NCBI RefSeq assembly: GCF_000177675.1
Contig: NZ_ADGX01000010.1
Location: forward strand, 1-64,000
Direction of reading: 5' to 3'
Source: Parafrankia sp. EUN1f
GTDB lineage: Bacteria > Actinomycetota > Actinomycetes > Frankiales > Frankiaceae
DNA length: 64,000 nt
Translations under genes and position numbers: made by a program
In this document: positions 31,680-62,742 of the stretch, piece after piece
Layout: each line of letters starts with the position of its first letter
Position numbering within the stretch: position 1 is the first letter of the stretch
Notes under the pieces: model-generated
Database searches by the model: none
What the model was told of the DNA's origin: nothing
What the model saw: the letters and a program-made list of their open reading frames with translations, nothing else

Positions 31680-31811
31680 AAGACGAGCGCCGTCGTACCT
31701 GCCTGACAGAGGGAGCAGCTTCTTCAAGCCGGTTGCCTCGTCGGCGGCGCGGAACTTGCCTCGCACTGGGAACTCGGGCAGGACGGTGTGGGGAGGAGTG
31801 GGCCGCGTCAT
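31680..31811 (-). pseudogene. N-terminal relic of AICE-type XRE regulator
   Basis: The frame from ATG 31811 reads MTRPTPPHTVLPEF, then KFRAADEATGLKKLLPLSGR, then YDGA. It aligns with the start of the intact element regulator at 56703 (MAQPAPPYTVSPEL, then DFRAACEAMDFGTIFRLMRK, then YDGA). Homology stops after ~44 codons, where sequence leading to the TIR gene takes over, so the gene body has been lost. Confidence 0.7.
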
Positions 31812-31929
31812 CCGCCAACTCCTCTGGGTGGGGCCGACTGCGGAGAGTCGGCGGGTGGTCGGGTCGCTACGCAGAGACTAGCCCGACCATGCCACGTGGT
31901 GGCATCACCCGTAGGTCGCCGTTGTGAGG
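31809..31929. repeat. copy of AICE promoter module (see 56701-56819)
   Basis: About 120 bp upstream of the relic aligns nearly end to end with 56701-56819, including the identical core GTCGCTACGCAGAGACTA and the end GTTGTGAGGA. It holds a perfect palindrome ATGCCAC-GTG-GTGGCAT-like element at 31889-31905 (arms ATGCCAC and GTGGCAT). This is a preserved operator/promoter now upstream of the TIR gene. Bases 31930-32140 show no gene. Confidence 0.8.
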
Positions 31930-32140
31930 ACCAGCCCTCGGAAAGCCCCTGTCCGTCCGTGTCCGCTCAACGCCGCGCCTGTGGCGGCCGGCCACATCGC
32001 GCTGTGACCTGGGCGCCGCTGTCAGCAGCCGCGATCGTTTGGGGGAAGCCGGGCAGGTCCCTCAGCGGGCCGCGCCCCGCGCCGCCTGGCGCCGCGGTCA
32101 ACAGCCCGCAGCGTCAGGCCCGCTGACGCATGACTTTCAG

Positions 32141-44808: not shown

Positions 44809-45438
44809 TCAGCCGGGAAGGAGGACAAACGCCACCAGCAGGGCGATCTTCAGGGCGAGGACGAGGTCGCCGGCGGGACCGGACACGTGGGGCAGTCCGA
44901 TCGCTGCCAGGACACGGGTGGCTGCCTCCCGGGCCTTCGGCCACAACAGCAGCACGACGCTGACGCCGCAGCCCGCAACAGCGGCCTGGATGCCGACCGG
45001 CTCGGCCGTGAACATGACGGCGATCGCCGACGCCGCCACCATCGCGAATGCCTTGATTCCGGCGATCGCCGACGCCGCCACCATCGCGAATGCCTTGATT
45101 CCGGCGATCGCCGACGCCGCCACCATCGCGAATGCCTTGATTCCGGCGAACGCCACCAGCGCGTGCGCGCGGGGAAGCAGGACGGTGGCGAGGCCCGCCG
45201 AGATCAGGACCATGGCCAGCGTGGTCAGCCCGGTTGTCGGCTCCGGTTCGACCTCGGCCAGGCGAGCCATACGCAGGCCGGGAGCTGGGTGCTCGAGCCC
45301 GGAGACGGTCACCGCGAGCACGGTCAGCCCGGCGACGGCGGCCTGAACCACGCGCAGCACCAGCAGCGCGGCGAGAACGAAAAGCAGCCTGGTCGCGCGC
45401 CGCCGGCTGGCCGAAGTCACCACGGAGTTCATCGACAT
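44809..45438 (-). CDS. multi-pass membrane protein with three identical 14-residue repeats
   Basis: 209 residues with about six hydrophobic segments. The centre has three exact copies of GIKAFAMVAASAIA, which lengthen a membrane-embedded Ala-rich region. The second and third copies look like recent duplications of a 42-bp DNA unit. ATG 45438 is chosen over an upstream start. Family not recognised. Confidence 0.65.
   Translation of the reverse strand: MSMNSVVTSASRRRATRLLFVLAALLVLRVVQAAVAGLTVLAVTVSGLEHPAPGLRMARLAEVEPEPTTGLTTLAMVLISAGLATVLLPRAHALVAFAGIKAFAMVAASAIAGIKAFAMVAASAIAGIKAFAMVAASAIAVMFTAEPVGIQAAVAGCGVSVVLLLWPKAREAATRVLAAIGLPHVSGPAGDLVLALKIALLVAFVLLPG
45019..45144. repeat. 42-bp perfect tandem repeat, 3 copies
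   Basis: Units 45019-45060, 45061-45102 and 45103-45144 are identical and in frame within the membrane protein gene. Confidence 0.9.
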
Positions 45439-50446: not shown

Positions 50447-50711
50447 TACCCTCCGGCGCCGAGGCCAGCGGCGGCACCTTCGCGAAGCCGGATCCGGTGG
50501 CACCTACCCGCGTTCACGGCCTACGCCACACCGCGGCCGTGCTGCTGTTCTCCGCCGGTGCCGACCGGAACGAGATCCGCGCCCTGCTCCGGCGCACACC
50601 AGGCTGGCCACCAGAGCGGAAATCTACGCGCACATACTCACCAGGCTGCACCGCCTGTCAGCTACCGACCGTGGACGAATTGGGGAGGGGGATCGGGCCG
50701 CGGAAACGTGA
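50447..50711 (+). pseudogene. C-terminal relic of a tyrosine integrase
   Basis: RVHGLRHTAAVLLFSAGADR with EIRALLRR is box II of a tyrosine recombinase. In a shifted frame, HTRLATRAEIYAHILTRLHR supplies the nucleophile Tyr region, ending at TGA 50709-50711. The N-terminal two-thirds is absent. It sits in the position expected for the int gene of an earlier AICE, with its 3' end facing the tRNA-Arg att site. Confidence 0.7.
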
Positions 50712-50746
50712 TCGTTTTCAACTGCAGTACTTGAGCCTGGAAGCGG

Positions 50747-50785
50747 CAGAGCCCCGCAGCCTTGGATGGGGGCTGCGGGGCTCTG
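50747..50785. terminator. strong stem-loop beside the att site
   Basis: CAGAGCCCCGCAGCC (50747-50761) and GGCTGCGGGGCTCTG (50771-50785) form a perfect 15-bp stem with a 9-nt loop. It lies just 3' of the tRNA-Arg 3' half (minus strand) and could end both tRNA and int transcription. Confidence 0.75.
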
Positions 50786-50803
50786 GCCTGTCTCAACCGT
50801 GCG

Positions 50804-50845
50804 TGCGCTCGGAGGGACTCGAACCCCCAACCTTTTGATCCGTAG
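50804..50845 (-). other. attachment site: 3' half of tRNA-Arg(ACG)
   Basis: On the minus strand the sequence runs from the anticodon loop CTACGGA (anticodon ACG) through variable loop AGGTT and the T-arm with GGGGG-TTCGAGT-CCCTC to acceptor CGAGCGC plus A, as in actinobacterial tRNA-Arg(ACG). The 5' half is absent: the bases beyond the loop do not form an anticodon stem or D-arm. This is the usual core for integration into a tRNA 3' end and marks the left boundary of the element. Confidence 0.85.
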
Positions 50846-51161: not shown

Positions 51162-54020
51162 CTATCTTATTCTCTGTGGAAGCAATTTCTTGCCTCGACA
51201 CCAAGAAGATGACCAAGATCCATAGGTTGAAGATAGCGAGTCAAGTTCCGAGTTAGAGAATCGTGAGATTGTGGGTTCAAATCGTTTGACATTTGAAACC
51301 GAAGTGCGGGTTGCGGCCATCCTTAGAAAGGAGTCGAAAGTCTCGGTCCCAAAAAAGATTGGCCGAAGGAATTCTTCGACACATTCTTTCTCGCTTCCCT
51401 CCCAGAGTAGTGCGCAGAACCATCTAGAAAGTGCTGGAAATCTATCGTTGGTAGTGCGTCTGGAACTGTTGGAGACGGCTGCAATAAGAAGTTTCCGAAG
51501 ATCATAACCGATCTCGCCGTAAATTCGTACGCTGCCGATACTGCGATCAACGTAGGAGAGTAGGGCGGCGTCATTTTCTTCGTTCGTCAAGTTACCCTGA
51601 AGAACCAGACGAATGTAAGACCCGAGTACGGCACCTCCGTAGGGGTAGTCGTTTATGTAATGAATAAAAAGCCCTCCGGAGCGAAATTTCTGTATATGAT
51701 CTTCGATCGTATGAAGTCGATCCCTGATAAGCAAATTCGTGACAGCCAAGTTGTTGCTCGTAAGAAGCTTTTGGCTGACCGAAGTGGCGATAGTCCGATA
51801 TATTGGATTCCAGTCCTCTTCGAATAGCGCTGTCTGTCCAAGAAAAAACCCGCGACACCAGAGGGCAACGAAATTCTCCCCTAGCGTCCATTCTGTTTTC
51901 GTGCCCGCGGGTGGCGAATTGTACCCCTCCAGAGCCACTCTCTCAAATCGGGATCGCGGATCCCGATAGAGTTCGAGAATAGCGCCAAGTGCGTCTCCCG
52001 TGAAAGCATCTTGAGAGGCTGCAGAGAGGCCGTCGTTCAAGTGTGCGAATACTCTATCGACGACGGTTTGACGAATTGGCGATGAATTAAGTAGGCGCAG
52101 GCAGAGTGATAGGTAGCGGTATCTGCGAAGTGGCCCAGTGCTGAGTCCAATCAGTCGGTCAACGATGTTTGCTGCCCCATTGTCAAACTTTTCCTCGGCG
52201 CATTGAACGATTACGTCCGGAAGAACCGAGCTAGGGTCACTCTCAAACGCCCCAACTACCTCAGAAACGACTTCTTCGACTGTATTTGCTCTCCGAACCA
52301 AACCCTCCGCCGCGTAGTACTCATTGAAGGTGCGATGCGTAAACGAGAATAGGCGTTGGTTCCGCTCACTAGTTCCTCTAGCGGTCAGTAGCCACGCGCG
52401 ATCGGCGCAAAACTCAAGAAAGTCGTGAGCACGTTGTCGTGCAGCCTCAGGTTCAACGACAGAGGTGTCCTGGAAGAACCTGGAGATTACATTCTCAAGC
52501 TGACGTTCTTCGACTCCGCGTTGGGCCGCTGCGCTCCGGTAGTAGAATAATGCTAGCTCTTGCATCAATCGAGCGCCATACTGGCGGTGATCGAATGGTG
52601 TCTCGATCTGCCGCATCGAATCCCATCGCCGAAACAGCAAATCTGCACAGTCTCTATATACATCCCGACGGTTTGTCGGGATGTACCCCCGGGTTCGGTA
52701 GAGAGTACAAAGAAGCGATAGCATTAGAGGATTCGGTGAAATATCGGAGATGCTTTCAAGGTCTCGTAGAAAATGACTTTTTTCTAGTTCGGTGCGACGG
52801 GTGATCTGGAACCAGCGTTCTACATAGTCGGCAATTTGTGGCTGCGTGAACTCGGCAAGTTCGTAGTTTTGGAAAGGCCGACTAAAGGAAGCCTTCTTGT
52901 ATCCTACTCTTCTTGCGGTTGCAAGGATGGTCGCAAGGGGAAAACGGTGTCCGAAAGCTTGAATGCGAGCGATAAAAGCTCGCCTCTGTGGAATATCGAT
53001 GATTTCGTCAACGCCATCGAATATTACAAGTGTGCGGCCGAGTGAGAGTAATGCGGAGAGATCTTTCTCGGAAACCTCCAGGGAGAGCTCCACTGACAGG
53101 AATCTGGCCAACAGTGAAAGTACTGTGTCTTCCCTCGTCGGTTGATACTGCCTGCACAAGAACAGCAGGGGAGCTACTCGATCGTCGGGAGTGTCAAGAT
53201 GAGAAACTTGGTTGATTAGGTGCCTTACAAACGTGCTCTTTCCGACTCCCGGATCGCCAGTGACGACTATTCGCGACCCAGCAGGAGACCCAATTATCAG
53301 TCGATCTGCCTCGAATCTTTCTCCGGAAGCAGTGTTTGCAACATCTCGGTCGACATAGAGATTTTCGAACCCAATTCGATACTCATCTTGGGCATGTTCG
53401 ATTCGCATTTCCGTGTAGTAGTTCTGCATTGCTCGCTGGATGTCTGAAACGAGACCGCCGAGATAAGCGAGCCTATCAACGTCGTGTGCCGCATCGACAA
53501 TTTCTCGTAGAAACGGAGGTGCATAAGTGCTTTCGCCTTGGAGGAGTGCGGATCCACCGAAGGTTAGAATTTTCTCTTTCTCTTCTGTCGGTATCTCGCC
53601 CAGGGCAGATTGTGTTGGCAAAGATCGATTGATGGCCGTGGTGAGAAGGTGCCACAGTGGCTCGTGGAGACTCGCCCATTCGGCGCTATTCTGCTTGCAC
53701 CAATCTTCGGTAAGGCTCGCGAAGCCGAGTGCAGACTTCTCTTCTACGATCTTGATAACTTCTCGCGGGCATGCAATTCGAGCGATGCAGTAGCTTTTTG
53801 TTAGGCGAGCAACCTCGGGACCTTTTAGAAATTCTTCTATCTGTAGTATCTGACCCTCTGTTGCTATTGCCTCGATCTCTCCTTCGATTTCAAGGGTCTG
53901 GTCGCCTATGATTTCGGGAGAGTGTACCGCTTGCGATCTAGCATTGCCCATTTTCTTGGCTGTTCCGATTACCATTGAGCCGATGGCTCGTCCTAGAACG
54001 CCTCCGATTAGCGGATCCAT
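51162..54020 (-). CDS. NACHT-domain NTPase, putative antiphage protein
   Basis: 952 residues. A Gly-rich hydrophobic N-terminus (DPLIGGVLGRAIGSMVIGTA) and a ~240-residue helical domain precede a NACHT module: Walker A GDPGVGKS (~254-261), Walker B TLVIFDGVDEI (~331-341), then ILATAR and the winged-helix region. The C-terminal ~400 residues are helical, without LRR or WD40 repeats. Bacterial NACHT proteins are known antiphage sensors. The DNA is strikingly AT-rich compared with both flanks, indicating recent transfer. It lies directly inside the left edge of the AICE as cargo. ATG 54020 is preferred to the longer frame, whose first 41 codons are not protein-like. Confidence 0.85.
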   Translation of the reverse strand: MDPLIGGVLGRAIGSMVIGTAKKMGNARSQAVHSPEIIGDQTLEIEGEIEAIATEGQILQIEEFLKGPEVARLTKSYCIARIACPREVIKIVEEKSALGFASLTEDWCKQNSAEWASLHEPLWHLLTTAINRSLPTQSALGEIPTEEKEKILTFGGSALLQGESTYAPPFLREIVDAAHDVDRLAYLGGLVSDIQRAMQNYYTEMRIEHAQDEYRIGFENLYVDRDVANTASGERFEADRLIIGSPAGSRIVVTGDPGVGKSTFVRHLINQVSHLDTPDDRVAPLLFLCRQYQPTREDTVLSLLARFLSVELSLEVSEKDLSALLSLGRTLVIFDGVDEIIDIPQRRAFIARIQAFGHRFPLATILATARRVGYKKASFSRPFQNYELAEFTQPQIADYVERWFQITRRTELEKSHFLRDLESISDISPNPLMLSLLCTLYRTRGYIPTNRRDVYRDCADLLFRRWDSMRQIETPFDHRQYGARLMQELALFYYRSAAAQRGVEERQLENVISRFFQDTSVVEPEAARQRAHDFLEFCADRAWLLTARGTSERNQRLFSFTHRTFNEYYAAEGLVRRANTVEEVVSEVVGAFESDPSSVLPDVIVQCAEEKFDNGAANIVDRLIGLSTGPLRRYRYLSLCLRLLNSSPIRQTVVDRVFAHLNDGLSAASQDAFTGDALGAILELYRDPRSRFERVALEGYNSPPAGTKTEWTLGENFVALWCRGFFLGQTALFEEDWNPIYRTIATSVSQKLLTSNNLAVTNLLIRDRLHTIEDHIQKFRSGGLFIHYINDYPYGGAVLGSYIRLVLQGNLTNEENDAALLSYVDRSIGSVRIYGEIGYDLRKLLIAAVSNSSRRTTNDRFPALSRWFCALLWEGSEKECVEEFLRPIFFGTETFDSFLRMAATRTSVSNVKRFEPTISRFSNSELDSLSSTYGSWSSSWCRGKKLLPQRIR

Positions 54021-54178
54021 CAGTAGCCCCCGGTGTGGTGTAGTCCGTAGCGATGTCGTGATTAATAGGAGAGTCTCGCGTTGCGCCGGCGAGCATGGCG
54101 CGGCAGCGCCAGGCGCAGCCGTCGCGCGGCGCGGGATCCGCACTTGATCCTAAATTGGCGGTTTCGGCAACGTCTGGC

Positions 54179-54667
54179 CTACGTGGTTGCCTCGTGTCGG
54201 CGGCGCCATGCGGCGCATCGTTCGACGTAGGCGGGTAGGTGGTCGCGGGCGAAGTCGTCCGGGCTCCACGCTGCGGCGGGGAGTAGCTCGGCGGTGTTGG
54301 CGCAGACGTAGGCCCATGCGTGGCGGTCGTGGTCCAGGGCGATGCGTCCGACCGTGTAGAAGTCGGCTTCGAATGCGTCCAGCGTGACCCACTCGCTCGG
54401 CGTGAGGTCGTCGAAGAGGTGGCCGGTCGCGGTGGCGTCCTGGTCGTGGATGAGGCCGGGGTAGATGCGTTCCGGCAGGGCGATGACGCGCCATCCGGTA
54501 ACAGCAACCGGGGTGCGGTGGGGGTCGCGGTCGATGAGGACGCGTAGAACGTCAGGGAAGAGAAGGCTTCCGTAGACGAAGAGGGGTGCCGGGTCCGCCG
54601 ATGCGGGGGCCAGTCGGCCAAAGGCCGGTGAGCTGGTGCGGGGTGAGGGGCTGTGTGTAGGTGGCAC
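54179..54667 (-). CDS. gamma-glutamylcyclotransferase-like (AIG2-like) protein
   Basis: 162 residues. APLFVYGSLLFPDVL is the GGCT fold's substrate loop (YGSL), followed by GHLFDDLTPSEWVTLDAFE, which contains the catalytic Glu region. The family cyclises gamma-glutamyl amines or dipeptides. GTG 54667 is preceded by GGAAGG at good spacing but overlaps the end of the HExxH gene by 116 bp. Third gene of the XRE/HExxH/GGCT operon. Confidence 0.75.
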   Translation of the reverse strand: MPPTHSPSPRTSSPAFGRLAPASADPAPLFVYGSLLFPDVLRVLIDRDPHRTPVAVTGWRVIALPERIYPGLIHDQDATATGHLFDDLTPSEWVTLDAFEADFYTVGRIALDHDRHAWAYVCANTAELLPAAAWSPDDFARDHLPAYVERCAAWRRRHEATT

Positions 54668-55748
54668 GGAAGACCTTCCCCACGGTGTCGGTGTCGGCGG
54701 TGTCGGCGAGGTTGACGAACCAGTCGATGCCGGCGGGGTAGGCCCACAGGTAGCTGCGTAGCTGGGGGTCATTGCCGCGGTCGGTGAGGATGTCGGCGAT
54801 CGTGCCCGTGGTCCAGAACGGGACGCGGGTGCGGGCGTGCTCGGCGCATGCGGCGGCGGAGTGGCCGGTGTTGACGGCCTGGTGTAGCTCGGCGCGGACG
54901 AGCTGGAGGTAGTGGTCCAGGCGGACGCGGGCGGCTACGGCGGAGTCGTCGGGGATGACGAACAACGGCATGGCCTGGGCGATGCCCTCCAACAGCACCT
55001 GGTACGGCACGTGGACCGACAGCAGGCGCGGCCACGGAACGTCGGTGCTCTCGGCGGTGCTGGTGTAGCTGGCACTCTGCAGCGCGTGGCCGAGGATCTC
55101 GTGTAGGGCGAACTGGCGTAGCCGGGTCTTGGTGAAGGCGGCGTTGCGAAGGTTGAACCGTAGCCGGACCTGGTGGCCGGTGCCGTCCAGCCAGTAGGCC
55201 CAGTAGGCGTCGACGTCGGCGGTCGTGATGTCCAGCGTGTACGGCGCATCCGTTTCGGCAACCGCGCGGACGGCCGGCTCCAACTCGTCCGCGGCGGCGC
55301 GGATCAGGTCCGGTGCGTCGGCGGTGTCGACGGGGCCTTCGGCGTCGCGGAGCTGGCGGTCCGTGTCCGGTCCCCAGGAGATCCCGAGGTCGGCCAGTGC
55401 CGCGCGGGCGCGCTCTCCCACGGCGGTGACGTACTCGTCGGGCCATCCGCCGGCGGGGCATCCCTGGGTGGCAATCAGGTAAGGGTCGAGCGGGGGCCGC
55501 TCGCCGAGCAAGGCGGCCAGGTAGGCCAGGTGCGCGCGGAGCTGCTCGGCGCACACCTGGTCGTCCTCGGCTTCGGCGCGTTCGTGCAGCCTGCTGAGCG
55601 TCTCGTAGACGTCCAGGCGGCTCGGGGCCGCGGTGACCGGCTCGTCGACGGGCGCACAGTCGAAGTCGATGACCGGGGCGGCGCCACGGGCTATTTCGTG
55701 GGCGTCCCAGGCGCGTAGGGCCTGCTCGATGGCGTCACGTAGACGCAT
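54552..55748 (-). CDS. HExxH zinc-peptidase-like protein
   Basis: 398 residues with a clear metallopeptidase helix FALHEILGHALQ (HEILGH ~213-218) and a downstream LLEGIAQAMPLF whose Glu (~251) could be the third zinc ligand, i.e. a gluzincin layout. The rest is helical and not assigned to a family I can name. The start overlaps the XRE stop by 14 bp, so the two are coupled. Pairing with an XRE regulator recalls ImmR/ImmA-type control, where a peptidase cleaves a repressor. That role is an inference. Confidence 0.7.
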   Translation of the reverse strand: MRLRDAIEQALRAWDAHEIARGAAPVIDFDCAPVDEPVTAAPSRLDVYETLSRLHERAEAEDDQVCAEQLRAHLAYLAALLGERPPLDPYLIATQGCPAGGWPDEYVTAVGERARAALADLGISWGPDTDRQLRDAEGPVDTADAPDLIRAAADELEPAVRAVAETDAPYTLDITTADVDAYWAYWLDGTGHQVRLRFNLRNAAFTKTRLRQFALHEILGHALQSASYTSTAESTDVPWPRLLSVHVPYQVLLEGIAQAMPLFVIPDDSAVAARVRLDHYLQLVRAELHQAVNTGHSAAACAEHARTRVPFWTTGTIADILTDRGNDPQLRSYLWAYPAGIDWFVNLADTADTDTVGKVFRATYTQPLTPHQLTGLWPTGPRIGGPGTPLRLRKPSLP

Positions 55749-56703
55749 GCGGGGTGTCCCACCGGAGCGTGACGAACTGGTTCGGGCGCAGGTTGCGGCG
55801 GGTCAACTCGATGACGATGCCGTTCTCGTCCCGGGCGATGGACAGGCTTTCGGTGGCGGTGATCTCCGATCCGTCCGGCCTGTCCTCGGTGGCGGAGCAC
55901 CGGGTCAGGGCTGTCACGCCCTGGTGGCGAAGCCGGATCGTGAACAGGCCGGTGGGGCGGACGATGGACTGCCGCCAGTAGTGGTCGTAGACGAACCGTC
56001 CGCCGGTGCTGCGGTAGCCGACCACCGCGGATTCCCCGGGCTGGATGGCGGGGAAGATCTGGCAGGCGAACCGGGCGGATAGCGCGGTGTCGTGGACGCG
56101 CTGGATGATGATGTTCCGGTCGGGCGACGGCAGGGCCTCGATGTCCAGCGGGCCGCGGGTTGTCTCGAACCACAGCTCGCGGTTCAGGCGGGTAAAGGCC
56201 GTGTCGGTGCCGTTGTAGATCTCGTGCCGATAGGTCAGGGTCGCCCATCCGTCGTCGGCCACGTCGATGTCGATGGTCACGCTGCGGTCCTCGACATCGC
56301 CGGCAGGCGCGGCGGGAACGGGCCCGGATGTGGGTCCGGCTGGCTGCCCGGGGATGACCGGCGTGGGTGACCCGGGGGCCGCTGCTTCGGCAACTGTCGC
56401 GGGGGCGGTGGCTTCCCATGGACGCGGGGCGAGACGGAAGTACGCCCCGGGGATGCGTAGGGCATCGGCGATGCGCTCGACCAGGTCAAGCGTGGTGATG
56501 CGGGTCTCTCCGGACATGACCCGGCTGACGCGGCTTTGGGTGAGGCCGCGGACGGGCGAGGAGACGCGGTCCTGGCTGGCTCCGTCGTACTTGCGCATGA
56601 GACGGAAGATCGTCCCGAAGTCCATGGCTTCGCAGGCGGCGCGGAAGTCGTCCCGGGCGAGGAGTTCGGGCGAGACGGTGTAGGGAGGGGCGGGCTGGGC
56701 CAT
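55735..56703 (-). CDS. XRE-like HTH regulator of the element
   Basis: 322 residues. The N-terminal ~95 residues form an HTH (FGTIFRLMRKYDGASQDRVS, then LTQSRVSRVMSGETRITTLD), a Pro/Ala linker follows, and a C-terminal beta-rich domain (~140-320: TIDIDVADDGWATLTYRHEI, then GYRSTGGRFVYDHYWRQS) may sense a ligand or protein. First gene of the coupled HExxH/GGCT operon. A decayed N-terminal paralogue with the same promoter lies at 31680-31811. Confidence 0.78.
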   Translation of the reverse strand: MAQPAPPYTVSPELLARDDFRAACEAMDFGTIFRLMRKYDGASQDRVSSPVRGLTQSRVSRVMSGETRITTLDLVERIADALRIPGAYFRLAPRPWEATAPATVAEAAAPGSPTPVIPGQPAGPTSGPVPAAPAGDVEDRSVTIDIDVADDGWATLTYRHEIYNGTDTAFTRLNRELWFETTRGPLDIEALPSPDRNIIIQRVHDTALSARFACQIFPAIQPGESAVVGYRSTGGRFVYDHYWRQSIVRPTGLFTIRLRHQGVTALTRCSATEDRPDGSEITATESLSIARDENGIVIELTRRNLRPNQFVTLRWDTPHAST

Positions 56704-56819
56704 CCGCCATCTCCTCCGGGTCCGGGCCGACTACCAGGGTCAGCGGGTGGTCATGTCGCTACGCAGAGACTAACCCGGCCATGCGACGTTGGTATGGCCA
56801 GTTCGCCGTAGTTGTGAGG
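56701..56819. promoter_or_regulatory. promoter/operator module of the XRE operon
   Basis: This segment contains the inverted repeat GGCCAT (56777-56782) / ATGGCC (56794-56799) and the core GTCGCTACGCAGAGACTA, and aligns with 31809-31929. The remaining 56820-57044 up to the divergent gene shows no further gene. Confidence 0.65.
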
Positions 56820-57044
56820 ATCAGGCGCTCGGCTGGCGCTCGCCAACCGCTCGCTGAACGGAACCCCACCGGCTCGTCCATGCACACCGTGCATTGCCAA
56901 CTTGACGTTTCGTGACACATCCGGGTAGCGGGAGGCTGATCGGCAAGCCACCCCGTTCCGCGCCTGAGACGGGCGTCCTCCGCGGGGCGGGGTGGCGTCC
57001 AGAGCGGCAGACAGCGTGAACGGACGAACTGGGGGTGCGGCGGC

Positions 57045-58972: not shown

Positions 58973-59109
58973 CGGCCCCTCCGGCTGGCTCCTTCGGGGA
59001 AGCGGCCCGGACTCTGGATACTGACTGACTCCCAATCCGGGCCGCTCCTCCTTTCTCTAATTCCCTCCTTCCTCTGGTTTCGTGCGCTCTGAAACGGGTG
59101 GTGTTTGGC

Positions 59110-60771
59110 ATGTCCAGGATCAACGGCGACCGGCGGTTGCCGCGTATTCCGTCCCGGCCGGATCGGGTGCGGGTACCGCTGTGGATGCTGCTCGTGGCGG
59201 TGGCCGGTAAGGGGCTGGTGCTCGGGGTGCGCTGGTGCTGGCGGCACCGGGTCGCTGTGCCCCTGGTGCTGGTGCTCGCGGTGTTCACCCACCGGGCCGG
59301 GCCGCTGCGCCTGGTGGCGCTGCTCGCCGCGCTGACCCTGGTCGCGGTGGGCTGGTCGCAGGTGCACCCGCGGTCGTTCGGCTGGCTGTCGCGGCGGGTC
59401 CGGGCCCGGGTCCGGTTGGCGTTCGTGTACCGGCGGCGGTGGGTGCCGGCGATGGTGCACACCAGTCTGGCCATCCGCATGCCGGCCTCGAACGGCGACC
59501 AGGTGACGTTCGACGAGTACTTCCCACGGATCCGTTCAATCCGTTCCACCCGGGCGGTGGACACGCTGCGGGTGGAACTCCTTCCCGGGCAGACCCCGGA
59601 GCAGTGGGCGGATCAGGCCGAAGCACTACGGCACGTGTTCCGGGCCCGGCGCTGCCAGGTGCAGGCGGAGGAGCACCGGTACATCCGGGTGCACTTCCAC
59701 TACCGCGACACCCTGACCGGCCAGATCCGACCGATCCGCCTCGACAACCCCGGCCCGGTCATCGACCACGAAACCGGTGACCAGACCGGCGGCGACCCCT
59801 CCAACGGCGGCCCTGCGGCGGCCTCGATCGTCGCGGGCCTCTCGGCGATTCCGATCGGCCGCTGTGAGGACGGATCTCCCTGGACCCTGCCGGTCCGGGG
59901 GACTCATCTGCTCGTCGCGGGTGCCACCGGGGCGGGGAAGGGGTCGGTGCTGTGGTCGATCATCCGCGGTCTCGGTCCGGCGGTACGGGCGGGGCTGGCC
60001 GAGCTGTGGGTGTGTGACCCGAAAGGCGGTATGGAGCTGGCGTTCGGGGAACCGCTGTTCACCCGCTTCGCGACCCGCACGGAGGAGATCGCGGATCTCC
60101 TCGACGACGCCGTGGCGGTCATGCAGAAACGGACGGGCCGGCTGCGGGGCCGGACCCGGCTGCACACCCCCACGACCGGTGAGCCGCTGATCGTCCTCGT
60201 CGTTGATGAGATCGCGTCGCTGACGGCGTATGTGACCGACCGGGACGTCAAGAAGCGGATCGGGGCAGCGCTGCCGCTGCTGCTGTCCCAGGGACGCGCC
60301 CCGGGCGTGGTGGTCCTGGCGGCGGTGCAGGACCCGCGTAAGGAGGTGCTGCCGTTCCGGGACCTGTTCCCGGTCCGGGTCGCACTGCGGATGACCGAAC
60401 CGGAACAAGCTGACCTCGTGCTCGGCTCGGGCGCCCGGGACCGCGGCGCGCGGGCGGATGAGATCCCGGTGTCCCTTCCCGGGGTGGGCTACGTGTTGGC
60501 GGAAGGTCAGCCGGAACCGGTCCGGGTCCGCGCGTCGTTCATCGACGACACGGAGATCAGCCGCACCGTGCTGGCCTACCGGCCGACCCCGGCCCTCGGC
60601 GCGGGTTGGACACCCGACCTGAGCGCCTACCTTGACGACCTTCCCGTGGTCGACCTTCCCGGCGTCGCCGGCGACAGCGGCTCCGCGGGGTGGACGCCGG
60701 ACCTCCGGGAGTTCCCGGGGCCCGACGGCCCGGAAACGAACGGGTTTCCCGGCTGGGGGGAGGTTGCTTGA
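59110..60771 (+). CDS. FtsK/SpoIIIE-type conjugal DNA translocase (TraSA/TraB-like)
   Basis: 553 residues. Two N-terminal membrane segments (~residues 25-85), a linker, then an FtsK-like ATPase: Walker A GATGAGKG (~271-278), LWVCDPKGGMELAFG, Walker B LIVLVVDEIASL (~359-370) and LSQGRAPGVVVLAAVQDP. Such single hexameric pumps move double-stranded DNA between mycelia. Stop overlaps the Rep start. Confidence 0.88.
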   Translation: MSRINGDRRLPRIPSRPDRVRVPLWMLLVAVAGKGLVLGVRWCWRHRVAVPLVLVLAVFTHRAGPLRLVALLAALTLVAVGWSQVHPRSFGWLSRRVRARVRLAFVYRRRWVPAMVHTSLAIRMPASNGDQVTFDEYFPRIRSIRSTRAVDTLRVELLPGQTPEQWADQAEALRHVFRARRCQVQAEEHRYIRVHFHYRDTLTGQIRPIRLDNPGPVIDHETGDQTGGDPSNGGPAAASIVAGLSAIPIGRCEDGSPWTLPVRGTHLLVAGATGAGKGSVLWSIIRGLGPAVRAGLAELWVCDPKGGMELAFGEPLFTRFATRTEEIADLLDDAVAVMQKRTGRLRGRTRLHTPTTGEPLIVLVVDEIASLTAYVTDRDVKKRIGAALPLLLSQGRAPGVVVLAAVQDPRKEVLPFRDLFPVRVALRMTEPEQADLVLGSGARDRGARADEIPVSLPGVGYVLAEGQPEPVRVRASFIDDTEISRTVLAYRPTPALGAGWTPDLSAYLDDLPVVDLPGVAGDSGSAGWTPDLREFPGPDGPETNGFPGWGEVA

Positions 60772-62522
60772 CCAACCCCACGACCCCCGACGCACCTTCG
60801 TCCCCTCACCGTCCCGACGCGGCTCCTTCCCCTGGCTGTGACGACCGTGACGATCGACCTGCCCGGCCCGGCTCCCGGGAAGCACGGATGCGCATGCCGC
60901 TGGCCCGGCAGGTCGTGGAAGCGGTCGCCATGGAGAACGGCGTGTGCGTGCGGCCGATGGCGATGCGGCGGACGAACCTCGACACCGGCGAGACGGAGAT
61001 CGTGCCGGTGCCCTGCGGGGCGACGCTGGCCAGCAAGTGCCCGACCTGTGCGGAGCGGGCGCGGCGGCTGCGGATGGCGCAGTGCAAGGCAGGCTGGCAC
61101 CTGGAAGACGAACCGGTACCGGACCCGGACCCGCCGTCGGAGGACGCGAAGGTCCTTGCCGGCTTCCGGGCGGACCTCGAAGCACTGCGGCGGGACGCGG
61201 AACGGGACAGCGACCCGGCCGGCGTGGCCGAACTCGACGAACTTATCGGCCAGGTCGACGACGAACTCAACGCCCTGGGCGTGCGCGGCAAGGCTGCCCC
61301 GGACAACCGGGACCGGCCTCGCCGTGCCCGCTCGACCCGGCGACGCCAGGACGCCCCCGACCTGCCCCGGCTCCCGGTGGACAAGCGGACGATCGGCCGG
61401 ACCTACGAAGCCCCGGACGGCACGACCTGGCGGCCGTCCATGTTCCTGACGCTCACCTGCGACACCTACGGGCGGGTACGCAGCGACGGCACGCCAGTGG
61501 ATCCGGGCTCGTACGACTACCGGCGGGCGGCCCGCGACGCGATCCACTTCCCGAAGCTCATCGACCGGTTCTGGCAGAACCTGCGACGGTGCGTCGGGTG
61601 GGATGTGCAGTACTTCGCCGCGCTCGAACCGCAACGGCGGCTTGCTCCCCACCTGCACGCGGCGATCCGGGGCACGGTCCCGCGGATGGTGCTTCGCCAG
61701 GTGGCGGCGGCGACGTACCACCAGGTGTGGTGGCCACCGTGCGACCGACCGATCTATCCGGATACGGCGTTGCCGGCCTGGGACACGGACAGCGGGGCCT
61801 ACCTCGACCCGACCACCGGAGAGGCGCTGCCCACCTGGGATGAGGCACTCGACGCGATCGGCGAGGAGGACGAACCCGCGCACGTCGCCCGGTTCGGCCC
61901 GCAACTACGCGTGGACGGCGTCACCGCGAACTCGGCCCATACCGGCCGGATGATCGGCTACCTGACGAAGTACCTGACCAAAAGCCTCGACACCTGCCAC
62001 GACACCGACAGCGACGCCCACCGACGCCACGTCGAACGGCTCGCGGACGCGCTGCGGCACGAACCGTGCTCGCCTGGCTGCGCGAACTGGCTGCGCTACG
62101 GCGTCCAGCCACGCAACCCGAAACCCGGCCTCGTCCCGGGCCGCTGTCGGGGGAAGGCACACCGGCGGGAGACGCTCGGGTTCGGCGGCCGGCGGGTGCT
62201 CGTCTCGCGTCGCTGGTCCGGCAAGACGCTGGCCGACCATCGGGCCGACCGGATCGCCTGGGTCCGCCAGCAACTCGAAGCACTCGGCCACACCGCCACC
62301 GGTACCGGCCCGGCGGCTGCGCCTGGTCCTGGGGCGGACTCGTCCCGGACGGTCTGCACCCTGCTGCGACCCGGTGACCCGGCCGCACCTCGACGGGAAC
62401 ACCTGCTCCTGCAAGCCGTCGCGCAACGCCGAGCCTGGCGGGCCCAACTCGACACGGCGAACGCTGCGGCACCCGGCCGGCATCCGGCAACCGGACCACC
62501 GGGCGCGCCCATCGCTGCCTGA
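60768..62522 (+). CDS. repSA: rolling-circle replication initiator RepSA-like
   Basis: 584 residues with a CPTC Cys pair (~90), MFLTLTCDTYG (~225), the metal-binding HUH PHLHAAIRG (~295) and a tyrosine motif TGRMIGYLTKYLTKS (~398), as in RepSA of pSAM2. TTG 60768 overlaps the translocase stop (TTGA) with GGGGGGAGG just upstream. It nicks the element's origin after excision. Confidence 0.88.
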   Translation: MTNPTTPDAPSSPHRPDAAPSPGCDDRDDRPARPGSREARMRMPLARQVVEAVAMENGVCVRPMAMRRTNLDTGETEIVPVPCGATLASKCPTCAERARRLRMAQCKAGWHLEDEPVPDPDPPSEDAKVLAGFRADLEALRRDAERDSDPAGVAELDELIGQVDDELNALGVRGKAAPDNRDRPRRARSTRRRQDAPDLPRLPVDKRTIGRTYEAPDGTTWRPSMFLTLTCDTYGRVRSDGTPVDPGSYDYRRAARDAIHFPKLIDRFWQNLRRCVGWDVQYFAALEPQRRLAPHLHAAIRGTVPRMVLRQVAAATYHQVWWPPCDRPIYPDTALPAWDTDSGAYLDPTTGEALPTWDEALDAIGEEDEPAHVARFGPQLRVDGVTANSAHTGRMIGYLTKYLTKSLDTCHDTDSDAHRRHVERLADALRHEPCSPGCANWLRYGVQPRNPKPGLVPGRCRGKAHRRETLGFGGRRVLVSRRWSGKTLADHRADRIAWVRQQLEALGHTATGTGPAAAPGPGADSSRTVCTLLRPGDPAAPRREHLLLQAVAQRRAWRAQLDTANAAAPGRHPATGPPGAPIAA

Positions 62523-62526
62523 GCCC

Positions 62527-62742
62527 ATGACCCGACTCGTCCGGAAGGTACCCGTGACCAAGCTTCTCCTGACCGTCGACGAAGCCGCGGAAGTGCTCGG
62601 CGTCAGCCGGGCGAAGCTGTATCAGCTCATGAAGGCGGGGGCGTTCGCGTCGGTGTCGATCGGCCGGCTGCGGCGGATCCCGGCCGATGAGCTGAGCGCC
62701 TACGTCGACCGGCTGCGGGGCGGATCGGCGCTGGCCGCGTGA
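62527..62742 (+). CDS. xis: excisionase (Xis), HTH_17
   Basis: 71 residues with a winged-helix excisionase fold: LTVDEAAEVLGVSRAKLYQL, then VSIGRLRRIPADELSAYVDR. It directs Int toward excision. ATG 62527 follows the Rep stop by 4 bp; GTG 62554 is an alternative start. Confidence 0.87.
   Translation: MTRLVRKVPVTKLLLTVDEAAEVLGVSRAKLYQLMKAGAFASVSIGRLRRIPADELSAYVDRLRGGSALAA

What the first reader, a model, noticed from the sequence alone, without database searches (positions are those of the whole stretch)
51162..54020. AT-rich NACHT NTPase as AICE cargo at the att-proximal end
A complete NACHT core with an unassigned ~250-residue N-terminal effector region starting with a Gly-rich hydrophobic helix, and a C-terminal part lacking known repeats. 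Known bacterial NACHT proteins give phage protection; the N-terminus may act on membranes. Composition differs sharply from both flanks.
Basis: partly seen in the sequence, partly recalled or inferred. Interest (0 to 1): 0.7.

Follow-up and report, generated by a model that had tools for sequence, protein, structure and literature searches.

The report
Immune-sensor gene carried by mobile element
An intact, AT-rich gene for a bacterial relative of animal immune sensors sits as movable cargo at one end of a self-transmissible DNA element, in a slot where related elements carry other, partly defence-type genes; its front domain belongs to an unnamed helical family whose action is unknown.

Summary
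The ORF at 51162-54020 (-) encodes an intact 952-residue NACHT protein at 50.5% GC; its flanks are about 70%. It is cargo of a 14.6-kb AICE. A 126-bp att repeat (98%) flanks the element, with a 43-nt core in the 3' end of tRNA-Arg(acg); the NACHT stop codon lies 316 bp from attL. The NTPase switch is canonical and resembles NLRC4/NLRP3/NOD2. The front domain belongs to a small, mostly actinobacterial family (18 aligned members) without a Pfam or structural match; a six-helix bundle and a first helix of low confidence are predicted. Membrane action is possible but unproven: hydropathy is below the transmembrane range, and the basic stretch seen in many relatives is missing here. New here: the place between attL and the backbone genes is a variable, AT-rich slot. 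A congener with the same chromosomal site and left att core has another gene there; other relatives carry an IetA-like AAA protein beside a subtilase-like one, or TIR proteins. Best reading: a NACHT defence receptor, probably abortive, moving as AICE cargo. Low-GC AICE cargo, a NACHT protein included, has been in print since 2011; the domain family and the slot are the additions.

The parts
51162..54020 (-). NACHT STAND NTPase gene, 952 aa (P0001), AT-rich cargo
53955..54017 (-). predicted N-terminal Gly/Ala-rich helix, residues 2-22 (block pLDDT 38-46)
53622..53906 (-). predicted six-helix bundle of the N-terminal domain, residues 39-133 (block pLDDT 76-87 for residues 41-130 predicted alone, 55-67 in the full-length model)
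52806..53273 (-). NACHT domain, residues 250-405, Walker A GDPGVGKST and Walker B IFDGVDE
52308..52349 (-). winged-helix motif FSFTHRTFNEYYAA, residues 558-571; F560, H562, E567 and A571 invariant in the 18 aligned members
51165..52307 (-). C-terminal part, residues 572-952: predicted helical, no Pfam family, low confidence after about residue 780
50720..50845 (.). attL, 126-bp repeat; 43-nt core 50803-50845 is the 3' end of tRNA-Arg(acg)
50506..50719 (+). relic of a related integrase C-terminus left of attL (older element)
54179..54772 (-). GGACT-family gene, AICE backbone gene that borders the cargo slot
54552..55748 (-). conserved 398-aa AICE backbone protein, no Pfam match
55735..56703 (-). 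HTH_31 regulator, AICE backbone
59098..60771 (+). FtsK/SpoIIIE-type transfer protein (TraB-like)
60690..62522 (+). RepSA replication initiator
62374..62742 (+). HTH_17 protein, excisionase-like (frame start uncertain)

Best explanation
This is a NACHT-clade STAND NTPase that works as an invader sensor and is carried as exchangeable cargo of an AICE. Shown: intact gene, canonical NTPase switch, NLRC4-like NACHT-winged-helix core, three-part architecture shared with relatives, position in a variable slot of the element. Inferred: at rest the protein is ADP-bound and closed; the helical C-terminal part senses an invader product or its effect on the cell; nucleotide exchange opens it and it oligomerises; this brings the helical N-terminal domains together, which stops growth or kills the infected cell. 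How the N-terminal domain acts is open: direct action on the membrane and recruitment of a host partner are about equally likely (the first two rivals are forms of this last step).
For: NACHT domain over cut-off. Walker A, Walker B and winged-helix His positions are invariant in the 18 aligned members; the profile's winged-helix stretch matches NLRP3 chains weakly (best E 0.0077). Model residues 183-673 align to NLRC4 8fvu_B with Z 23.4, rmsd 6.2, 417 residues. The aligned stretch begins at NLRC4 residue 94, so residues 1-182 stand where NLRC4's CARD is (CARD position recalled). The 18 members share N-terminal domain, NACHT core and C-terminal part; they were picked for the shared N-terminus, so the less biased measure is the profile count: 20 of 104 NACHT frames in the fetched loci and window match the N-terminal profile in frame, and apart from L012 they are the top of the NACHT ranking. 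N-terminal label on the 35-row tree: 2 changes, 0 of 500 shuffles as low. The slot holds other genes in relatives: IetA-like AAA, 196 bits, best of 11 matches in G002, beside a subtilase-like protein; TIR_2 over cut-off in G005 and G030. A congener has a different gene at the same chromosomal site. Bacterial NACHT proteins protect E. coli from phages (PMC12169576, passages).
Against: No function was measured. No PADLOC family beyond a weak P-loop match (mad8, 18 bits, residues 244-275). Far under the cut-offs of the antiphage equivalogs DS8 (26.4 of 790) and EruA (24.2 of 1000). Rare: in 1 of 6 genomes of the genus at E up to 1e-10. AICE cargo is often decaying (PMC9513070, abstract and passages), although this gene is intact. 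TIR genes are common in both slot genomes (11 and 26 matches), so a TIR gene in a slot is weaker support than it looks. The IetA model rings in 14 of 14 control genomes. No random-position control was run for the slot.
Confidence: 0.62

Rival explanations
1. The N-terminal domain is a membrane-active helical bundle: oligomerisation releases its Gly/Ala-rich first helix, which inserts into the membrane, as in plant coiled-coil NLRs and fungal HeLo proteins (analogy recalled).
For: Residues 3-21 are the most hydrophobic 19-residue window of the protein. N-terminal segments of the 18 members hold 5-13 Gly/Ala/Ser of 19. The 30 residues after a similar segment hold on average 5.6 K/R against 3.5 in the background. 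No enzymatic domain is detectable.
Against: Hydropathy 0.40-1.38 in the 18, under the usual transmembrane range. The window protein itself has 3 K/R and 6 D/E after the helix. Helix block pLDDT 38-46. No significant fold match; BOK, a Bcl-2 protein, appears at E 8.0 and a holin at E 7.4, both chance level.
Confidence: 0.25
2. The N-terminal domain is an adaptor of the CARD/death type that recruits a separate effector encoded elsewhere in the genome.
For: Six-helix bundle of about 95 residues in the place of NLRC4's CARD. Bacterial CARD-NLR systems use such a helical domain (PMC13236601, passages).
Against: No second copy of the domain in the own genome, G194 or G215 at E up to 1, all candidates scored. 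In 93 fetched loci (frames of 60 residues or more) the only profile matches without NACHT in the frame are the linker of L012 and a frame directly upstream of the NACHT frame in L031. No peptidase or gasdermin family among the ORFs scanned with Pfam, although the 398-aa backbone protein has an HExxGH motif by eye. None of the 50 rows shown in either PDB structure listing is a CARD, which excludes nothing.
Confidence: 0.27
3. The gene serves the element, not the host against phages: it keeps out rival plasmids and AICEs or acts as an addiction or transfer-control gene.
For: It lies last on the leftward strand after the HTH, 398-aa and GGACT genes of the AICE. A relic integrase left of attL shows that elements have succeeded each other at this tRNA site.
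Against: The gene is not part of the conserved backbone: relatives with the same backbone lack it, and members of the family lie on Rhodococcus and Streptomyces plasmids. These facts also fit defence.
Confidence: 0.2
4. Passive, non-functional cargo on the way to loss.
For: AICE cargo in Streptomyces is often pseudogenised (PMC9513070, abstract). In the congener no TraB or RepSA match and only an integrase end were found. Two relatives of the NACHT gene, L012 and L031, look frame-broken.
Against: Open frame over 952 codons with the core motifs kept.
Confidence: 0.08

Closest known systems
Bacterial NACHT (bNACHT) antiphage proteins
   Same: N-terminal effector position, central NACHT, C-terminal sensor part in one polypeptide (architecture from PMC12169576, passages)
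   Different: N-terminal helical family without PD-(D/E)XK nuclease or other Pfam domain; no named C-terminal domain found by Pfam; protection untested
NCBIfam DS8_antiphage (NF053861) and antiphage_EruA (NF058535)
   Same: NACHT-region similarity; EruA matches 18 of 18 members weakly, best E 4.6e-12; DS8 4 of 18
   Different: 26.4 of 790 and 24.2 of 1000 bits for the window protein; no N-terminal match
Animal NLRs NLRC4, NLRP3, NOD2
   Same: NACHT, helical and winged-helix arrangement with the FxHxxxxEyyAA-type motif
   Different: no CARD or PYD match, no LRR found; 12-16% identity in the structural alignments
Bacterial CARD-NLR systems (Lysobacter, LypABC of Caulobacter)
   Same: helical N-terminal module with an NLR-like NTPase
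   Different: those are operons with peptidases and a gasdermin or lysis effector (PMC13236601, passages); no such partner gene was found here
Frankia AICEs (PMC3218068, 2011)
   Same: att-tra-rep-int-att layout, RepSA, tRNA integration, genes under 55% GC, a NACHT NTPase named in the Figure 7 legend (passages)
   Different: the passages seen do not single out one cargo slot or the N-terminal domain family

Membership tests
NACHT-clade STAND NTPase | PF05729 over its gathering score | tested here: met
   53.2 bits against 26.7; 18 of 18 members match
NACHT-clade STAND NTPase | intact Walker A and Walker B with the D-G-x-D-E signature | tested here: met
   G255, P257, G258, G260, K261, T263 and D335, G336, D338, E339 invariant in 18
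NACHT-clade STAND NTPase | winged-helix after the NTPase with conserved His | tested here: met
   H562 invariant; weak profile match to the NLRP3 stretch; fold Z 23.4 to NLRC4
bNACHT antiphage proteins | tripartite architecture with a C-terminal part after the NACHT module | tested here: met
   same layout in the 18 members, N-terminal parts 197-321 aa and C-terminal parts 329-419 aa
bNACHT antiphage proteins | protection against phage that needs the NTPase | not testable with these tools
   needs an experiment
bNACHT antiphage proteins | placement in one of the published clades | not tested
   reference sequences not at hand; the 35-row NACHT tree holds fetched loci only
DS8 / EruA antiphage equivalogs | score over NCBI's curated cut-off | tested here: not met
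   26.4 of 790 and 24.2 of 1000 bits
CARD-NLR systems | CARD or death-fold N-terminal domain | tested here: inconclusive
   six-helix bundle predicted; best structure hits E 0.53 and Z 5.8
CARD-NLR systems | adjacent peptidase and pore-forming effector genes | tested here: inconclusive
   no such Pfam family among the ORFs scanned; not every ORF was scanned and the 398-aa protein has an HExxGH motif by eye
HeLo/Bell or coiled-coil pore domains | helical bundle with membrane-inserting first helix | tested here: inconclusive
   low-confidence first helix, weak hydropathy, no significant fold match
AICE | tyrosine integrase, RepSA, FtsK/SpoIIIE transfer protein, Xis-like HTH, att repeats at a tRNA 3' end | tested here: met

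The most novel reading that the evidence does not exclude
The N-terminal family is a bacterial counterpart of the pore-forming helical bundles of plant coiled-coil NLRs and fungal HeLo proteins, fused directly to a NACHT switch. A single AICE-borne gene would then encode a complete one-protein 'resistosome' that punctures the host membrane, traded in a dedicated defence slot of actinobacterial AICEs.
Probability: 0.17. Interest if true: 0.78.

Novelty: new variant of a known kind. Interest (0 to 1): 0.42.

Why it matters
Bacterial NLR-like proteins whose effector part cannot be named are a gap in reading defence genomes. This one belongs to a small, testable family with its own NACHT clade and an unassigned helical N-terminal domain. 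The slot comparison gives a practical handle: the stretch between attL and the GGACT/398-aa genes of this AICE lineage can be mined in other actinomycetes for defence candidates, much as prophage and satellite hotspots are mined in enterobacteria.

Tried and rejected
Full tRNA in the window: none; the intact tRNA-Arg lies beyond the window. Phage collection: 1 record, residues 226-595 only. IMG/VR: 20 loci, none covering residues 1-217, so no sign that the family is phage-borne. PDB by sequence: nothing under E 0.3 for the protein or under 0.16 for the N-terminal profile. N-terminal fold: Foldseek best E 0.53; VIA-align best Z 5.8, to nuclear-receptor ligand domains, which is noise level for helical models; viral library best E 0.24; no CARD, HeLo or MLKL entry is among the 50 rows shown of each list, which excludes nothing. 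Conserved neighbours among relatives: I printed the best 60 pairs only; nearly all are between the two Lentzea loci, the rest are L025-L034 and L029-Lentzea pairs, and none involves the window. Literature: EruA with NACHT gave 0 papers; the NNH search gave noise; the Bell/HeLo search gave mainly fungal and amyloid-signalling papers and noise (listing); one search gave noise. A NACHT protein on Frankia AICEs is already in print, so 'NACHT on an AICE' is not new.

By profile, 20 of 104 NACHT frames match the N-terminal domain in frame, one of them (L031) only at 21 bits. L031, a cyanobacterial MAG, has a further weak match in another frame directly upstream, so it may be a frame-broken member.

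Slot census limits: 12 of 35 family genomes have a match to the 398-aa backbone protein, the window's own included. I fetched 10 such loci from 9 other genomes; G029, G032 and a second short match in G006 were not fetched. L139 and L141 are cut by contig ends, so 8 loci inform on cargo. In L142 and L143 GGACT was not found and the slot borders the 398-aa gene. Of the 8, three (G002, G005, G030) have a defence-type family by profile; HEPN-like (L134, L143), ParA-like (L143) and nitrilase-like (L144; its PDB matches are TraD/HerA-type ATPases) are names by eye; GHKL-like (L135) rests on weak MutL/PMS1 matches; the L137 TIR protein had no PDB match; L142 is unassigned.

Full report
1. The gene. 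The reading frame at 51162-54143 (-) is open for 993 codons from a GTG; the ATG at 54020 gives 952 residues. Three plasmid relatives with annotated starts begin at the same place with similar residues, so this start is kept. GC is 0.505 and third-position GC 0.495, against 0.674-0.725 and 0.778-0.885 in seven other genes nearby. The NACHT domain is well above its Pfam cut-off and is the best NACHT match in the genome; the family's full-length profile finds no second copy there at E up to 1e-10.

2. The element. The stretch 50720-50845 recurs at contig position 65331-65456 with 98% identity. The right copy overlaps an intact tRNA-Arg(acg). The shared tRNA part is 43 nt. Between the copies lie a FtsK/SpoIIIE transfer protein and an HTH_17 protein, RepSA and, mostly beyond the window, a tyrosine integrase. 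This is an AICE of about 14.6 kb. The NACHT gene is its leftmost large gene. Left of attL lies a relic of the same type of integrase end, in a 77% match that runs on into the att repeat, so an older element once used the site.

3. The switch. Walker A, Walker B and winged-helix His positions are invariant in the 18 aligned members. AlphaFold2 with 15 sequences gave mean pLDDT 69.1 and pTM 0.63, mostly above 70 from about residue 180 to 780. That part aligns to NLRC4 (8fvu_B, Z 23.4, rmsd 6.2, 417 residues), and NLRP3 and NOD2 follow in the list. The aligned part starts at NLRC4 residue 94, where its CARD ends (recalled), so residues 1-182 stand in the effector position.

4. The N-terminal domain. 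It is shared by the 17 other aligned proteins, all from Actinomycetota: Rhodococcus and Streptomyces plasmids, Lentzea, Actinoplanes, Microbacterium, Cellulomonas, Solihabitans, Streptomyces and others. A further paralogue stands beside one of them in L029, and a cyanobacterial MAG (L031) gives weak matches in two frames. The Rhodococcus proteins are 31% identical over residues 61-765, the Solihabitans one 37% over 163-624. Pfam finds nothing in the window's N-terminal part and nothing consistent in the others (11 families, 1-2 members each, best E 0.0025). The PDB sequence search is empty (best E 0.16). Predicted alone, residues 39-133 form six helices (block pLDDT 76-87 for residues 41-130) and residues 2-22 a helix of low confidence; in the full-length model the same bundle has only 55-67. 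No significant fold match was found. The domain is rare: 3 of 393 genomes of the class at E up to 1e-5, with at most 6 candidates scored per genome. It was found once in each of the three genomes where all candidates were scored.

5. Family structure. NACHT cores of the clade score 377-470 bits on the clade profile, and the next best frame 240; most of the clade helped to build the profile, but L012, L031 and the second L029 gene did not and score 400-411. On the 35-row tree the N-terminal label needs 2 changes (0 of 500 shuffles as low; a single change in 0% of 200 bootstrap trees), and L012 and L031 join the clade at an unresolved fork. L012, from the same bacterial family as this genome, has a DUF4062 domain in front, separated from its NACHT part by a frame break; this suggests exchange of N-terminal domains.

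6. The slot. In congener G003 (locus L134) the left flanking aldo-keto reductase (99%), the right metallophosphatase (95%), the tRNA-Arg, the 43-nt left att core (43 of 43) and the GGACT, 398-aa and HTH genes (91-94%) are all present. The place of the NACHT gene holds a different 498-aa frame and what looks like an IS110-type transposase (names by eye). In 8 of 9 relatives measured the first 1.4-1.5 kb of the slot have GC 0.51-0.57 against 0.69-0.71 in their backbone genes; the exception, L138, has 0.648; L141, with 0.7 kb of slot, was not measured there. The cargo of the 8 informative loci differs each time. By profile: an IetA-like AAA protein (196 bits) next to a subtilase-like protein (PDB match E 6.9e-5), and TIR_2 proteins in two loci (47.6 and 106.7 bits, cut-off 28). 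The other contents are named by eye or not at all. att copies border the slot's far side in L134 and L142 and in G023, where four copies stand in a row. The sample is small and no random-position control was run, so 'defence slot' is a suggestion; 'variable, mostly AT-rich cargo slot' is what the data show.

7. Function. Following the NLR and bNACHT scheme (PMC12169576, passages; ADP/ATP steps recalled): closed ADP form, trigger sensed by the C-terminal part, nucleotide exchange, oligomer, N-terminal output. Only the switch and the architecture are shown. Output by membrane damage or through a partner stays open: hydropathy and charge give the first no firm support in this member, and the absence of a second domain copy speaks against homotypic recruitment.

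8. What was known. Frankia AICEs were described in 2011 with the same layout, genes below 55% GC and a NACHT NTPase in the legend of Figure 7 (PMC3218068, abstract and passages). Streptomyces AICE families carry different cargo in related elements, including phage-resistance candidates (PMC9513070, abstract and passages). Actinobacterial nuclease genes in AICEs and near defence genes are reported too (PMC11706625, passages). Two papers on bacterial conflict systems were seen in passages and describe helical N-terminal adaptor domains in general (PMC8195603, PMC7159879). What I did not meet in the listings is this N-terminal family or the attL-GGACT slot; that library lacks most subscription papers, and the original bNACHT clade paper (recalled) was not read.

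Noticed in passing
window 50506-50719; L134 3165-3380: Relic C-terminus of a related integrase left of attL, present in a congener too: an older AICE used this tRNA-Arg before the present one.
   Followed up: partly
L145 520-644, 1551-1646, 2587-2712, 3540-3635: Four copies of the att repeat (matches of 96-126 bp, 94-99%) about 1 kb apart in genome G023, at the far end of its cargo slot.
   Followed up: no
L136 4364-7757: Frames of an IetA-like AAA ATPase and a subtilase-like protein overlap, resembling the IetAS defence pair (recalled), in the slot of a congener's AICE.
   Followed up: partly
L029 2303-5230 and 6329-9721: Two NACHT genes of the same clade stand one after the other in a Nocardiopsaceae MAG; the first has a diverged N-terminal domain (59 bits).
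   Followed up: no
L012 2534-3367: Same NACHT clade with a DUF4062 N-terminal domain, frame broken near the Walker A motif: N-terminal domain exchange and decay, or a sequencing error.
   Followed up: partly
L031, frames at residues 3080 and 3255: Cyanobacterial MAG with a weak N-terminal-domain match (23 bits) in one frame directly before a NACHT frame of this clade: possible frame-broken member outside Actinomycetota.
   Followed up: no
window 54552-55748: Conserved 398-aa AICE backbone protein without Pfam match carries an HEILGH motif (by eye, zinc-peptidase-like); matched in 12 of 35 genomes of the family.
   Followed up: partly
window 45018-45154: Three copies of a 42-nt tandem unit.
   Followed up: no
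window 56579-56832 and 31687-31941: Two stretches 73.5% alike, one inside the AICE and one outside, possibly another element relic.
   Followed up: no
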